Assembly (NCBI RefSeq): GCF_000715505.1
Contig: NZ_JHEH01000007.1
Span: 62,001-126,000 of the forward strand
Direction: 5' to 3'
From: Thioclava dalianensis
GTDB lineage: Bacteria; Pseudomonadota; Alphaproteobacteria; Rhodobacterales; Rhodobacteraceae
Length of the DNA stretch: 64,000 nucleotides
Part shown: one piece after another, positions 11,731 through 36,625 of the stretch
How the letters are laid out: every line of letters starts with the position of its first letter
Numbering within the stretch: the first letter of the stretch is position 1
Position numbers and translations under genes: made by a program
Notes under the pieces: model-generated
What the model saw: the letters and a program-made list of their open reading frames with translations, nothing else
Told to the model about the DNA's origin: nothing
The model's database searches: none

Positions 11731-13314
11731 ATGGCACGGGCGCGGCTTCGCATCATGACATCGGCAATTCTGGCAGGCAGCCTGCTTGCCGCGCATGCGG
11801 TGCAAGCGCAGACGCAGGATGTCGTCACCAAGCAATATGACGATGGCGGGCTCTATGAGGGCACCTTCACCGATGGCAAGCAGGACGGCTACGGCACCTA
11901 CAAGCTGCCCTCGGGCTACGAATATGACGGCCAATGGGTGATGGGCGAGATCAAGGGCAAGGGCCGCGCGCGCTTCCCCAACGGCTCGGTCTATGAGGGC
12001 CAGTTCGACCGCGGCAAACCCAACGGCAAGGGCAAGATCACCTTTGCCGATGGCGGCACCTATGAGGGCGACTGGATCAACGGCGAGATCACCGGCACCG
12101 GCACGGCGCATTATGCCAACGGCTCGACCTATTCGGGCCAGTTCAAGAACGCGATGCATAACGGCAAGGGCACGCTCGAGAGCGCGAATGGCTATCGCTA
12201 TGTCGGCACTTGGATCAACGGCGTCAAACAGGGCGAGGGCGAGATCACCTATCCCGATGGCTCGACCTATTCCGGCCAGATGGAGAACGGGCAGCGCTCG
12301 GGCAATGGCACGCTCAAGATGGCTGACGGGCTGATCTATAAGGGCGCATGGAAAGACGGCCAGATGAACGGCATGGGCACGCTCACCCAGCCCAATGGCG
12401 ATGTCTATGAAGGCCAGATGGTGAATGGCAAGCGGCACGGCAAGGGCCGCGTCACCTATGCCAATGGCGATGTCTACGAGGGCGATTTCCTGCTCGACAA
12501 ACGCCATGGCACCGGCACTTTCACCGGCACGGATGGCTATGTCTATGAGGGCGACTGGAAAGAGGGTCGGATCGAGGGCACGGGAAAGGTGACCTATCCC
12601 GATGGCTCGGTCTATGAAGGCCATTTCAAGAATGACCAGCCCGATGGCAAAGGCAAGATCACCTATCCCGATGGCTCCAGTTATGAAGGCGATTGGGTTG
12701 CGGGCGTCATTGATGGCACCGGCACCGCGCGCTACGCCAACGGGCTTGTCTATGAGGGCCAGTTCAAGAACGCGCGCAACAGCGGCACCGGCAAGATGAC
12801 CTATCCCGACGGCTACAGCTATGACGGCGAGTGGGTTGACGGGCAGCGGCAGGGCAAGGGCATCGCGCGCTATTCCGACGGCACGGTCTATGAGGGCAAC
12901 TTCAAAGCCGGTCAGCGCGACGGGATGGGTAAGCTCACGATGCCCGACGGTTTTGTCTATGAGGGCGAGTGGCGCAATGGTGCGATCGATGGCAAAGGGA
13001 CCGCGACCTATGCCAATGGCGACACCTATACGGGGATGTTCCAGAACGGCAAACGCGAGGGGCAAGGCACGATGACCTATGCCTCGGGTCAGGTGGCCTC
13101 GGGCAAATGGCAAGACGGCGCGCTGAATAACGCAGCCCCCGATGCGGCGCAGGGCGAGACACCCGCCCCCGCCCAGACCGAGACCCCGCCCACGGAGGCC
13201 GCGCCCACGGAGGCCGCGCCCGAAGCTGCGGTCCCAAGCGATCAGGGGGCTGCCACGCCGGACAGCGCGACCGAAGGCACGCCAGCGGACGGGACTGCAC
13301 AGCCCGCCAACTAG
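11731..13314 (+). CDS. Secreted MORN-repeat protein
   Basis: A 527-residue protein. Residues 1-26 are a signal peptide (cleavage likely after VQA). Residues 40-453 are 18 consecutive 23-residue MORN repeats of form xYxGxF/W...GxGxxxxxxG, followed by one degenerate unit. The last 55-60 residues are a disordered Ala/Pro/Thr/Glu tail. The aromatic after the YEG box alternates Phe/Met and Trp between neighbouring repeats, with one slip between repeats 9 and 10. MORN arrays form elongated beta-sheet rods used in lipid or protein contact; a periplasmic or surface scaffold is plausible but not shown. The start at 11731 has only a weak GGGGGCAGG ahead of it; the ATG at 11755 would still leave a signal peptide. 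Confidence 0.9.
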   Translation: MARARLRIMTSAILAGSLLAAHAVQAQTQDVVTKQYDDGGLYEGTFTDGKQDGYGTYKLPSGYEYDGQWVMGEIKGKGRARFPNGSVYEGQFDRGKPNGKGKITFADGGTYEGDWINGEITGTGTAHYANGSTYSGQFKNAMHNGKGTLESANGYRYVGTWINGVKQGEGEITYPDGSTYSGQMENGQRSGNGTLKMADGLIYKGAWKDGQMNGMGTLTQPNGDVYEGQMVNGKRHGKGRVTYANGDVYEGDFLLDKRHGTGTFTGTDGYVYEGDWKEGRIEGTGKVTYPDGSVYEGHFKNDQPDGKGKITYPDGSSYEGDWVAGVIDGTGTARYANGLVYEGQFKNARNSGTGKMTYPDGYSYDGEWVDGQRQGKGIARYSDGTVYEGNFKAGQRDGMGKLTMPDGFVYEGEWRNGAIDGKGTATYANGDTYTGMFQNGKREGQGTMTYASGQVASGKWQDGALNNAAPDAAQGETPAPAQTETPPTEAAPTEAAPEAAVPSDQGAATPDSATEGTPADGTAQPAN

Positions 13315-32867: not shown

Positions 32868-34274
32868 ATGGAGATTTCGTTTCTTCTCAACGGAGAAACC
32901 CGGCGCGTCGTGATCAGCGATCCGACCCAGAGCGTGCTTGACTGGCTGCGTGCCGAAGGCCTCACCGGAACCAAGGAAGGCTGCAACGAGGGCGATTGCG
33001 GCGCCTGCTCGGTGATCGTCACCGATCACGACGGCGCACACCCCCTCAATGCCTGCCTGATGATGATGCCCCATCTGCAGGGCCGCGCCCTGCGTACGAT
33101 TGAAGGGATCACGGGCCCTGCGGGCGCGCTGCACCCGGTCCAGCAGGCGATGATCGACCATCACGGCTCGCAATGCGGCTTTTGCACGCCGGGCATCGTG
33201 GTGAGCTTGGCTGCGGCCCATCTCAATGGCCAAAGCGATTACGACGATCAGCTTGCAGGCAACCTGTGCCGCTGCACCGGCTACGCCCCGATCATCCGCG
33301 CCGCCGAGACGGCCAAAACCGCGCCTGTCCCGGACTGGATGCACGATACTCCTTTCACCTTGGATCAAGTATCTTCGGGGGGAACGGTCGCGGCGCCAGC
33401 CGAGGCCGTGGGGGGCAGACAGCCCCCCTTCCTGCCCGCCGATGCGGATGCGCTGGCCCGCTGGTATCGCGCCCATCCCGATGCCACGCTGATTGCAGGC
33501 GCGACCGATGTCGGGCTTTGGGTGACCAAGCAATTGCGGACGCTGGAGCCGGTGGCCTTTCTGGGCCAATGCCGGGATCTGCAGCAGATCGACGAGACGC
33601 CTGAGAGCTATGTGATCGGGGCCGGGGTGACGATTGCGGCGCTGCGCGCGGCGATGGAGGGCCCCTATCCCGCGCTGGCGGGACTGCTTCGCCGTTTCGC
33701 CTCCGAGCAAATTCGTCAGGCCGCGACAATCGGCGGCAATATCGCCAATGGCTCGCCCATTGGCGATGGCGCGCCTGCGCTCATCGCATTGGGGGCGCGG
33801 CTCACGCTGCGCCTTGGCGATACGCGCCGTGATCTGCCGCTTGAAGACTTCTTCCTTGAATACGGCAAACAAGACCGCCAGCCCGGCGAATTCGTCGAGA
33901 GCATCACCCTGCCCAAGGGCGTCACGGGGCTCGCCTGCTACAAGCTCTCGAAACGGTTCGATCAGGATATCTCTGCCGTCTGCGGCTGCTTCAATCTTGA
34001 GATCACCGAAGGTCAGATCCGCGCCGCGCGCATCGCCTTTGGCGGCATGGCGGGGATCCCCAAACGCGCCGCAGCTCTGGAGGCCGCCCTGACCGGGCAG
34101 CCCTTCACCGAAGCGGCGCTCACCGCCGCCCTGCCCGCCCTTGCACAGGATTTCGAGCCGCTCTCGGATATGCGCGCCTCGGATCACTACCGGATGGCTG
34201 CCGCGCGCGGGATGGTGCTGCGCTATCTGCATGAGGCGCAGGGCGCGCCCTCGATCCTTGAGGTGCAGCCATGA
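32868..34274 (+). CDS. xdhA: Xanthine dehydrogenase small subunit (Fe-S/FAD)
   Basis: XdhA carries two [2Fe-2S] clusters and FAD and passes electrons from the molybdenum site on XdhB to NAD+. Cluster cysteines are C39, C44, C47, C63 and C103, C106, C134, C136, nearly the numbering of R. capsulatus XdhA. The FAD domain has [14 protein letters not shown] and [13 protein letters not shown]. Length is 468. Residues 161-187, between the Fe-S and FAD domains, are encoded by an in-frame 78-bp repeat (33351-33428) whose Gly/Ala/Pro composition differs from its surroundings. It overlaps xdhB by 4 bases. Confidence 0.96.
33351..33428 (-). repeat. 78-bp hairpin repeat inserted in frame in xdhA
   Basis: On the minus strand: GGGGGGC-TGTCT-GCCCCCC, a variable middle, then CCCCCCGAAGATACTTG and ATCCAAGGTGAAAGG. 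It aligns without gaps to the xdhB copy (35413-35490), about 57 of 78 positions identical, with both ends best conserved. It encodes XdhA residues 162-187 in the linker between domains and keeps the frame (26 codons). Confidence 0.75.
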
Positions 34275-36625
34275 GCGTCGGTTCCACCCGCCCCCACGAG
34301 TCCGCCCGCCTCCATGTCACCGGCGCGGCCCGCTATGTCGATGACATCCCGACGCCTGCGGGCACGTTGCATCTGGCCTTCGGCCTGTCAGACAAACCGC
34401 ATGCCGATCTGACCGCTCTCGATCTCGACGCGGTGCGCACAGCGCCCGGCGTCGTGGCGGTGCTGACCGCCGCCGATATGCCCTTTGCCAACAACGCCTC
34501 GCCCGCACCCGATCCCGAACCGGTACTGGCCGAGGGCACGGTGCATTACGTGGGCCAACCGATCTTTCTGGTCGCGGCCACCAGCCATATTGCCGCGCGC
34601 AAGGCGGCGCGGCTGGCCAAGATCACCTATGCCCCGCGCCCCGCGATCCTGACGGTCGAAGAGGCGCTCGCGGCCGACAGCCATTTCGAGGGCGCGCCGG
34701 TGATCTGGGCGCGCGGCGATGTGCAAGCCGCGTTTGGCCGTGCCGTGCATCAGGTCGAGGGCCGCCTCGATATCGGCGGGCAGGAGCATTTCTACCTTGA
34801 GGGTCAGGCCGCACTCGCGCTGCCCGACGATCCGGGCATGGTGATCCGCTGCTCAAGCCAACACCCGACCGAGATCCAGCATAAGGTGGCCGACGCCTTG
34901 GGCTGTGCGATGCATGACGTGCGCGTCGAGATGCGCCGGATGGGCGGCGGCTTTGGCGGCAAGGAGAGCCAAGGCAATGCGCTCGCGGTGGCCTGCGCGG
35001 TGGCAGCACGCCTGACCGGACGGCCCTGCAAGATGCGCTATGACCGCGACGACGATATGACGATCACCGGAAAGCGGCACGATTTTCAGGTGCGCTACCG
35101 GCTCGGCGCCGATGCGCAGGGCCGGATCGTGGCCGCCGAGTTCACCCATCTCGCGCGCTGCGGCTGGTCGCCCGATCTCAGCCTGCCGGTCTGCGACCGC
35201 GCGATGCTGCATGCCGACAGTTCGTATTTCCTGCCCAATATCCGCGTCGAGAGCCACCGGCTGCGCACCAACACCCAATCCGCCACCGCCTTTCGGGGCT
35301 TTGGCGGGCCGCAGGGGATGCTCGCGACCGAGGCAGCGCTTGATCACCTCGCCCATGTGATGGGGCGCGATCCGCTCGAAATCCGGCGGCTCAATTACTA
35401 CACCGAGCGGTCGGGGGGCCGTCTGCCCCCCGCGGACAAGGCCGATGCCTTGCCCGCCCCCCCCGAAGATATTTCGACCAAGGCGAAGATGCAGACCACG
35501 CCCTATGGCCAGCCGGTCGAGGATTTCATTCTGCACGGCCTGACGCAGGATCTGCTGGCGCGTTCGGATTACGCGGCGCGGCGCACGGCAGTGGATCACT
35601 GGAATGCGCGCAATCCGATCTTGAAGAAGGGTATCGCCTTCTCGCCGGTGAAATTCGGGATCTCCTTCACGCTCACCCATCTCAATCAGGCGGGCGCGCT
35701 GGTCCATGTTTATTCCGACGGCTCGATCCAGCTCAATCACGGCGGGACCGAGATGGGACAAGGGCTGCATCAAAAGATCTGTCAGATCGCAGCGAGCGTC
35801 TTTGGCGTGGACGATAGCGGCGTGCGGATCACGGCGACCGCCACCGACAAAGTGCCCAACACCTCGGCCACGGCGGCCTCGTCGGGGGCCGATCTCAACG
35901 GGATGGCGATCAAGGCTGCCTGCGAGACGATCCGGGGGCGGCTTGCGGAGGTCTTTGCCGGTGAGGTCGGTTGTGAGGTCGCAGCGGTCGATTTCGCCGA
36001 TGGGATGCTGCGCGCGGGGGCCCAAGAGCTGCCTTTCAAGCAGGTCGTCAAGCGGGCCTATGAAACGCGCGTTTCGCTGTCCTCGACGGGTTTCTACGCG
36101 ACGCCAAAGCTCAGCTGGGACCGGCTCAAGGGGCAAGGTCGACCGTTTTTCTATTTCGCCTATGGCGCGGCGGTGAGCGAGGTGGTGATCGACACGTTGA
36201 CCGGCGAGAACCGGATCCTGCGCTGCGATATCTTGCATGATGCAGGGAGCTCTCTGAACCCCGCGATTGATATCGGGCAGATCGAGGGCGGCTATGTGCA
36301 GGGCGCGGGCTGGCTCACCACCGAAGAGCTGGTCTGGGACGATGCAGGACGGCTGCGCACCCATGCGCCCTCGACCTACAAGATCCCGGCCTGTTCGGAT
36401 CGGCCGGGGGTTTTCAACGTGGCGCTTTGGGATGAGCCGAACCGCGAGGAGACGGTGTTTCGCTCCAAGGCGACGGGCGAGCCGCCCTTCATGCTGGCGA
36501 TCTCGGCGTGGCTGGCGCTCAGCGATGCCTGCCGGGCTTGCGGCCCCGAATGGCCCGATCTGCAAACGCCCGCCACGCCCGAGGCGGTGCTGGCGGCTGT
36601 GCAGCGTGCGCGGGGTACGCCATGA
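34271..36625 (+). CDS. xdhB: Xanthine dehydrogenase large subunit (molybdopterin)
   Basis: The 784-residue molybdenum subunit oxidises hypoxanthine and xanthine to urate. Molybdopterin-contact and active-site motifs are visible: [35 protein letters not shown] and the catalytic base E737 in [11 protein letters not shown] (E730 in R. capsulatus). Residues 381-407, after LNYYTER, come from an in-frame repeat (35413-35490) and read as a Pro/Ala/Lys-rich loop. Overlaps xdhA and xdhC by 4 bases each. Confidence 0.96.
35413..35490 (+). repeat. 78-bp hairpin repeat inserted in frame in xdhB
   Basis: On the plus strand: GGGGGGC-CGTCT-GCCCCCC (7-bp stem, 5-base loop), a 30-base variable middle, then CCCCCCCCGAAGATATTTCG and ACCAAGGCGAAG. 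It is the same element as in xdhA but in the opposite orientation relative to the gene. It spans XdhB residues 381-407 and does not break the frame. Confidence 0.75.

What the first reader, a model, noticed from the sequence alone, without database searches (positions are those of the whole stretch)
33351..35490. Same 78-bp hairpin repeat inserted in frame in both xdhA and xdhB
33351-33428 (minus) and 35413-35490 (plus) align without gaps, about 57 of 78 bases identical by my count, with nearly identical palindromic heads (GGGGGGC-loop-GCCCCCC) and conserved CCGAAGATA/CCAAGG tails. Both have 26-codon length, keep the frame in opposite orientations, and fall at linker positions (XdhA 161-187 between Fe-S and FAD domains; XdhB 381-407 after LNYYTER). 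This resembles Rickettsia palindromic elements, which add peptide segments to proteins. I know of no report of this for Rhodobacteraceae.
Basis: partly seen in the sequence, partly recalled or inferred. Interest (0 to 1): 0.8.

Follow-up and report, generated by a model that had tools for sequence, protein, structure and literature searches.

The report
RNA-matched repeats inside xanthine dehydrogenase genes
Two short DNA repeats inside both genes of a metabolic enzyme belong to a bacterial repeat family whose end sequence is carried, almost letter for letter, by a small hairpin RNA-like locus in the same genome, which points to an undescribed RNA-and-target system that has also left its mark in proteins.

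Summary
In detail: 57 of 78 bases match; 0 of 10,000 shuffles reach that. The segments encode interdomain linkers of XdhA and XdhB and belong to a high-copy repeat (92 model hits at E<=10 in this Thioclava genome). Of 69 copies >=25 bits, 66 are intergenic, median 14 bp after a codirectional stop, none seen between divergent genes. The tail is GATATTT, three free bases and an ~11-nt 'module' that differs between genomes. The xdh copies sit at the same linkers in the same orientation across the family, as a set follow their genome's dialect, and one xdhB tail was exchanged in place.

Unexpectedly, a hairpin RNA-like locus without Rfam match carries the same module: 24 of 31 loci have a matching GATATTT-NNN-module site nearby, against 1 of 465 control windows. 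It occurs in several Rhodobacteraceae genera and on proteobacterial plasmids. In this genome one such module equals the xdhA tail 12/12. Base pairing is the likely link; transcription and effector are untested.

The parts
32868..34274 (+). xdhA (Fe-S/FAD subunit of xanthine dehydrogenase), host gene of the antisense copy
   Evidence: Pfam Fer2, Fer2_2, FAD_binding_5, CO_deh_flav_C; best PDB match 2w3r_A, E 3.9e-216
34271..36625 (+). xdhB (molybdopterin subunit), host gene of the sense copy
   Evidence: Pfam Ald_Xan_dh_C, MoCoBD_1, MoCoBD_2; best PDB match 1jro_B
33351..33428 (-). repeat copy inside xdhA, antisense to the gene; encodes residues 162-187 ([26 protein letters not shown])
33410..33428 (-). 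hairpin 1 GGGGGGCTGTCTGCCCCCC
   Evidence: fold and alignment
33384..33409 (-). hairpin 2 (imperfect)
   Evidence: the helix covaries among 61 genomic copies in an alignment fitted to the model
33367..33373 (-). GATACTT, the conserved GATATTT box with one change
   Evidence: alignment; family consensus
33352..33363 (-). tail module CCAAGGTGAAAG, identical 12/12 to the module of the RNA-like locus at G000:C44 (L054)
35413..35490 (+). repeat copy inside xdhB, sense; spans residues 381-407 ([27 protein letters not shown])
35413..35431 (+). hairpin 1 GGGGGGCCGTCTGCCCCCC
35432..35457 (+). hairpin 2
35468..35474 (+). GATATTT box
35478..35488 (+). tail module CCAAGGCGAAG

Best explanation
Shown: the two segments are copies of a dispersed, 3'-end-associated hairpin repeat of Rhodobacteraceae that sits in the interdomain linkers of xdhA (antisense) and xdhB (sense) in many genera, and lies in open frame there. 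Shown: its tail (GATATTT, three free bases, an ~11-nt module) is matched by a small hairpin locus (GCGGNACAGGC-N6-GCCGATGNCCGC, then the same module, then, in the four loci folded, a long GC hairpin) whose module differs between genomes as the tails do. Inferred: the locus makes an RNA that recognises the tail by pairing with its complementary strand, because modules are identical at positions 1-4, 7 and 8 and the changes at positions 5-6 are mostly tail A to RNA G, which keeps a G.U(T) wobble. Through an unknown effector this acts at gene 3' ends, probably on transcript ends or read-through between neighbouring genes. The xdh copies keep their DNA form because they are converted along with other copies and/or are themselves targets; the xdhA mRNA would pair over 12 nt with the RNA predicted between cobO and cobQ of this genome.
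For: Repeat family: 92 model hits at E<=10, only 150 of 725 candidates scored; hits in 30 of 37 same-family genomes and 1 of 24 others (E 0.007); one tail pattern counts 75 copies in this genome and 26-115 in 12 of 15 congeners (0 in the other three), with 0 for the reversed-pattern control in all 61 genomes. Position: 66 of 69 copies >=25 bits intergenic; 31 convergent, 20 tandem sense, 14 tandem antisense, 1 with one neighbour uncalled, 0 divergent; median 14 bp after the stop for the 51 with a codirectional upstream gene. Structure: helices covary in 61 genomic copies and in 48 hits of the named loci, 46 of them at xdh linkers; both alignments were fitted to the model. Same site and orientation: of 48 hits in 80 named loci, 31 sense at the xdhB linker, 15 antisense at the xdhA linker position, 2 elsewhere. 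Dialect: for 17 xdh tails from 12 genomes, distances to the own genome's tails sum to 33 against 60.4 permuted, 0 of 20,000. Tail exchanged in place: Thioclava atlantica xdhB keeps the head of three congeners (34-35 of 37) but carries GCATTTGGAAG, which ends 24 of the 100 tails listed for its genome. Partner: 24 of 31 loci have a GNTAYTT-NNN-module site within 1.25 kb at >=8/11, against 1 of 465 control windows; 26 curated pairs give 36 mismatches against 157.7 permuted, 0 of 20,000; positions 1-4, 7, 8 identical in 26 of 26; 19 of 22 changes at positions 5-6 are tail A to RNA G. Seven tail-to-tail pairs 125-179 bp apart in five genomes were fetched because of that spacing and all seven held the locus; nine other fetched sites did not. 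Scaffold stems pair in 99.4% of cells against 25-49% when slid, and the innermost pair takes four Watson-Crick types. Orthologous places with changed modules: cobO-cobQ in G000 and G064.
Against: No transcription data: that an RNA is made is inferred from structure. No effector is known. 20 of 66 intergenic copies lie between codirectional genes in sense, where no complementary transcript is expected, so pure RNA-RNA pairing cannot explain every site. 7 of 31 loci have no matching site by the automatic test; two of these (L336, L337) have one by eye. Three plasmid hits (L465, L468, L471) could not be parsed. The 26 curated pairs were chosen by resemblance and several are near-duplicates, so their permutation test overstates independence. 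The module is identical, not complementary, to the tail, and positions 9-11 match less well. In the dialect test only 4 of 17 xdh tails are strictly closest to their own genome, 6 tie and 7 are closer to another genome. xdhB of this genome matches its two RNA modules at 9 and 10 of 12. Some same-family genomes (7 of 37) show no repeat by the model. Gene contexts come from a home-made gene finder.
Confidence: 0.6

Rival explanations
1. A selfish miniature element (REP/MITE or Rickettsia-element like) that inserts after stop codons and sometimes in frame into linkers; dialects are subfamilies amplified in each genome, and the RNA-like locus is merely a derivative of the element.
For: High copy number, palindromes, tail-to-tail pairs (9 of 9 close pairs in G000), both orientations in tandem gene pairs (20 sense, 14 antisense), several subfamilies per genome.
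Against: No Y1 transposase (PF01797) in this genome and in only 4 of 23 same-family genomes searched. The three bases after GATATTT vary among copies of one genome while both flanks are fixed (the search pattern favours fixed flanks but left these three free), which plain copying would not give. All 6 elements found in 200 kb of one Thioclava recur at the same places in a relative about 93% identical. The module match also occurs on plasmids with only a few such sites near the locus.
Confidence: 0.2
2. Bidirectional transcription terminators or mRNA 3'-end stabilisers, kept similar by selection; inside xdhB the hairpin is ignored because it is translated.
For: Location just after stop codons, many between convergent genes, none seen between divergent genes.
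Against: No T-run after hairpin 1 (mean 1.4 T in 8 nt, 62 copies) and 4-6 T in the 8 nt from TATTT. 14 of 34 tandem copies are antisense. A sense copy sits in mid-xdhB, and terminators do not explain genome-specific modules or the partner locus.
Confidence: 0.12
3. The module is a DNA or RNA site for a sequence-specific protein (like DNA-uptake dialects), and the RNA is a decoy for that protein; no base pairing is involved.
For: Genome-specific dialects with fixed and free positions look like uptake-sequence dialects (recalled); identity rather than complementarity of RNA and tail fits a shared binder.
Against: The directed tail A to RNA G changes at positions 5-6 (19 of 22) fit wobble pairing better than a protein site, and one protein would have to read unrelated modules (GCATTTGGAAG, CAAGGGTTAGG, CACCAACCTTG).
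Confidence: 0.08

Closest known systems
Rickettsia palindromic elements (RPE)
   Same: Dispersed palindromic repeat translated in frame inside unrelated proteins.
   Different: Here nearly all copies are intergenic 3'-end elements; only xdhA, xdhB and one C-terminal extension are coding among 69. RPEs are about 150 bp and were reported 44 times in unrelated genes of one species (PMC10969869, passages seen); the passages seen mention no RNA partner or tail dialects.
GTAG- and CGTC-tagged REP repeats with RAYT transposases
   Same: Short hairpin repeats, downstream of genes, tail-to-tail dimers, occasional intragenic copies (PMC3733652, passages and the first of four parts of the results seen).
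   Different: No GTAG/CGTC tag at the hairpin foot, a ~21-nt tail with a GATATTT box and free triplet, no Y1 transposase in this genome, and a module shared with an RNA-like locus.
RNA-guided systems (CRISPR crRNA, TnpB/IscB omega RNA, IS110 bridge RNA; recalled, not searched)
   Same: A scaffold hairpin next to a short address that is identical to one strand of a target carrying a constant flanking motif.
   Different: Address only about 11 nt, three free bases between motif and target, mostly G in the RNA where the tail has A at positions 5-6, dozens of chromosomal targets, no effector gene identified.
Terminator-type small regulatory RNAs (recalled)
   Same: 5' hairpin, module stretch, terminator-like hairpin (four loci folded).
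   Different: The module is identical, not complementary, to sense 3'-end sequence at many genes and differs between genomes as those do.
C4 antisense RNA of phages and plasmids (Rfam; recalled)
   Same: Small structured RNA on plasmids and phages with a nearby related sequence.
   Different: No Rfam family reaches E<=1 in six plasmid or viral loci, and only sub-threshold matches appear in nine chromosomal loci; a same-sense copy instead of an antisense target.

Membership tests
Rickettsia palindromic elements | in-frame insertion into protein-coding genes | tested here: met
   xdhA and xdhB copies in open frames across genera; not recognisable in many orthologues
Rickettsia palindromic elements | copies found in many unrelated genes | tested here: not met
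   66 of 69 copies >=25 bits intergenic; 3 overlap genes
REP/RAYT repeats | terminal GTAG or CGTC tag next to a short hairpin | tested here: not met
   copies listed end in GATATTT-NNN-module instead
REP/RAYT repeats | cognate tyrosine transposase (Y1_Tnp) in the genome | tested here: not met
   0 matches in this genome; 4 of 23 same-family genomes
MITE | terminal inverted repeats and target-site duplication, mobilised by a resident transposase | not tested
   no TIR noticed by eye; TSD and autonomous partners were not examined
intrinsic terminator | GC hairpin followed at once by a U-run | tested here: not met
   mean 1.4 T in 8 nt after hairpin 1 in 62 copies; transcription itself not testable here
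Rfam RNA families (for the partner locus and for the repeat) | covariance-model match above gathering score | tested here: not met
   none over gathering score; sub-threshold matches only in 90 and 98
RNA-guided nuclease or recombinase systems | effector gene using the RNA | not tested
RNA-guided nuclease or recombinase systems | address in the RNA matches a target beside a constant motif | tested here: met
   24 of 31 loci against 1 of 465 control windows

The most novel reading that the evidence does not exclude
A previously undescribed RNA-addressed chromosome system: a small hairpin RNA, present on proteobacterial plasmids and in Rhodobacteraceae chromosomes, carries an 11-nt address that directs an unknown effector to GATATTT-NNN-address sites at gene ends. 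The address can change, and the chromosomal sites change with it, possibly by RNA-templated rewriting of the tail (head kept, three free bases at the junction, module replaced, as at Thioclava atlantica xdhB). Sites trapped inside xdhA/xdhB turn the addresses into protein linkers.
Probability: 0.35. Interest if true: 0.95.

Novelty: categorically new. Interest (0 to 1): 0.85.

Why it matters
Repeats at gene ends are usually treated as debris or terminators. Here they are paired, genome by genome, with a hairpin locus carrying the same address, and the address differs in step at orthologous places. If an RNA from it acts on these sites, one small RNA would address dozens of loci at once in a large bacterial family, and related pairs exist on plasmids of other groups including Legionella. 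It is also a natural case of DNA-level constraint or conversion overriding protein sequence: a translated linker whose peptide changes with the repeat's module. The solved Rhodobacter capsulatus xanthine dehydrogenase appears to contain peptides of this origin.

Tried and rejected
Replication polarity: in one genome (G024) 38 of 43 listed copies follow the leading strand, but that genome has strong GC skew and its copies were found only at exactly 2 mismatches; in Thioclava G007 43 of 100 listed copies do, so polarity was dropped. RAYT/REP origin: rejected for lack of Y1 transposase and tag. Protein-coding reading of the partner locus (MTAxGE...): rejected because L334 and L338 have stop codons within five codons of the ATG (read by eye) and the module is not conserved as peptide. 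Protein-level conservation of the xdhB linker: rejected, since the peptide differs where the DNA module differs. Rfam families: none over threshold. Phage collection with the 31-nt scaffold: weak hits only, listed at E about 10, not used. Plasmid scan with the scaffold: 139 records, of which I looked at 12 more besides the 6; many of the weaker hits lie in genes and were not counted. Rows dropped: 23 of 92 model hits below 25 bits were left out of the context count; 15 further weak or pattern-only sites were looked at, several of which are plainly coding chance matches. In one search the genome tail lists were a hand-typed, de-duplicated part of the listed tails.
Full report
What is there. The two segments are real and related: 57 of 78 bases identical, 0 of 10,000 shuffles as good, the longest inverted repeat listed for the window. 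Each has a hairpin GGGGGGC-N5-GCCCCCC, a second imperfect hairpin, a C-run, GATATTT (GATACTT in xdhA), three bases, and a tail CCAAGGYGAA. They occupy codons 162-187 of xdhA (antisense) and span 381-407 of xdhB (sense), between Fer2_2 and FAD_binding_5 and between MoCoBD_1 and MoCoBD_2. AlphaFold models give low confidence there: residues 171-183 are the only XdhA segment under pLDDT 50, and 382-405 is the longest of five such segments in XdhB.

A genome-wide family. A model of three copies finds 92 matches at E<=10 in this genome, with 150 of 725 candidates scored. A refined model hits 30 of 37 genomes of the same family and 1 of 24 others (E 0.007); in nine genomes all 77 scored candidates match, so true counts are higher. 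A tail pattern counts 75 copies in this genome and 26-115 in 12 of 15 congeners (0 in G008, G011 and G012), with 0 for the reversed control in all 61 genomes; outside the family it finds 0-2 per genome. The genus is inferred: a congener's xdhB contig has the length of one titled Thioclava indica. Of 69 copies of at least 25 bits, 66 are intergenic: 31 between convergent genes, 20 tandem sense, 14 tandem antisense, 1 with one neighbour uncalled, none between divergent genes; the median distance after the stop is 14 bp for the 51 with a codirectional upstream gene (gene calls by my own finder). Three overlap genes: xdhA, xdhB and the C-terminus of a YkuD-domain protein. Both hairpins covary, in alignments fitted to the model. 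A second head, GCCTCCGGCGGG directly before GATATTT, also occurs.

The xdh copies are old and go with their genome. In 80 named loci the refined model gives 48 hits: 31 sense at the xdhB linker, 15 antisense at the xdhA linker position (L172's XdhA was not in the protein alignment), 2 elsewhere; 9 loci have both. In 41 loci of relatives (one of them this genome) it gives 11 in xdhB, 8 in xdhA and 3 elsewhere (sorted by eye). Orientation never differs among these hits. Several congeners lack one or both. Solved R. capsulatus chains carry SSGVRGQTAPAF and ERGGLSAPPSPPEPIATKK at these places, close to my own reading of the element DNA of L126 and L088; the R. capsulatus DNA itself was not seen. 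For 17 xdh tails from 12 genomes, distance to the own genome's tails sums to 33 against a permuted mean of 60.4, 0 of 20,000; singly, 4 are strictly closest to their own genome, 6 tie and 7 are closer to another (lists hand-typed and de-duplicated).

Tail anatomy. In Thioclava G007, in 100 listed of 104 copies, positions 3-9, 14, 16, 20 and 22 of the 23-base tail do not vary (the search pattern favours this), positions 10-12 are free, and the ends fall into nine groups of four or more. Other genera have their own ends. All 6 elements found in 200 kb of G007 recur at the same places in G014, about 93% identical where aligned.

The partner locus. Three tail-to-tail pairs 123-125 bp apart turned out to enclose a conserved sequence: GCGGNACAGGC-N6-GCCGATGNCCGC, then the module. 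In the four loci folded, a long GC hairpin follows, in three of them with a run of T. Seven further pairs 125-179 bp apart, in G015 (three), G062, G063, G064 and G035, were then fetched; all seven held it, with modules TCAAGGGGAAG, GCATTTGGAAG, GCATCTGGACG, AAAAGGTGAAA, GAAAGGTGAAG, GCAAGGTGAAA and CCAAGGAGAAG, 9 to 11 of 11 identical to the local tails; nine other small sites fetched with them, mostly closely spaced pairs, did not. The scaffold also lies on plasmids of Paracoccus, Phaeobacter, Pseudosulfitobacter, Thalassococcus, Cereibacter, Leisingera, Rhizobium, Mesorhizobium, Shinella, Azospirillum, Thiothrix and Legionella; in 6 of the 18 records looked at a replication-initiator gene is within the stretch shown. 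It is on three viral contigs by the strict pattern. An automatic test asked whether a GNTAYTT-NNN site within 1.25 kb matches the module at 8 of 11 or better: yes for 24 of 31 loci, and for 1 of 465 control windows from the same loci. L465, L468 and L471 could not be parsed. Of the seven misses, L336 and L337 have a site by eye with a slightly different box; L334, L335, L339, L462 and L470 have none. Over 26 curated pairs, positions 1-4, 7 and 8 are identical in all; 19 of 22 changes at positions 5-6 are tail A to RNA G; 36 mismatches against 157.7 permuted, 0 of 20,000 (these pairs were chosen by resemblance and some are near-duplicates). In 20 loci the scaffold stems pair in 99.4% of cells, 25-49% when slid, and the innermost pair takes four Watson-Crick forms; two of the 20 (L054, L332) came from a search that required the other stem pairs.

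Different modules at the same place. The locus lies between cobO and cobQ in this genome (CCAAGGTGAAA; local tail CCAAGATGAA) and in G064 (GCAAGGTGAAA; tails GCAAGATGAAA) (cobO of G064 read by eye). It lies beside a glutathione-transferase-like gene in G062 and G063 (weak, below-cut-off family matches) and by eye in G035, and near pheS in G007 and by eye in G015, each time with a module of its own genome's tails. The module between cobO and cobQ of this genome continues as CCAAGGTGAAAG, identical at 12 of 12 to the xdhA tail (window 33352-33363), so an RNA from it would pair with xdhA mRNA; the xdhB tail matches the two modules found in this genome at 9 and 10 of 12.

How it may work. The wobble-compatible differences point to pairing of the RNA with the strand complementary to the tail. 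That strand is in DNA everywhere, and in RNA where transcription runs through in the opposite sense. Since 20 of 66 intergenic copies are in tandem-sense places, RNA-RNA pairing alone is not enough, and DNA-level recognition or templated rewriting cannot be excluded. These are inferences; transcription, effector and effect are untested.

Relation to known things. Where it sits in proteins it works like a Rickettsia palindromic element, but by location it is not one; it is not a GTAG/CGTC REP and has no RAYT in this genome; it reaches no Rfam threshold. RNA-guided systems are the nearest analogy for address plus constant motif (recalled), but no effector was sought or identified. In ten library searches no listed title or abstract start described it; the library lacks most subscription journals.

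Noticed in passing
L021 1026-1595 (G000:C11 12713-12779): A third coding copy: an antisense element supplies the C-terminal tail (after the YkuD domain, residues 15-159) of an L,D-transpeptidase-like protein.
   Followed up: partly
G024:C3 (list; skew samples L252-L271): 38 of 43 listed copies in this genome point along the leading strand, unlike Thioclava G007; possibly a mutation-bias effect of strong GC skew.
   Followed up: partly
L300, L305, L307, L308, L314 (this genome); G007 and G014 stretches: Alternative short head GCCTCCGGCGGG directly before GATATTT, also at xdhB in several genera (e.g. L124, L138, L151, L152, L162).
   Followed up: no
plasmid loci L340, L463, L464, L466, L468, L470: Scaffold hits with a replication-initiator (RepA) gene in the stretch shown, in 6 of 18 records looked at; may hint at a role in replicon control.
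   Followed up: no
window 11914-13041: A tandem array of 69-bp repeats inside one ORF, looking by eye like MORN repeats (recalled name).
   Followed up: no
L190 xdhA linker: In this Phaeobacter MAG the xdhA linker carries several GGGCAGAGCCCCC-like units, as if partial hairpin units had been duplicated in frame.
   Followed up: no
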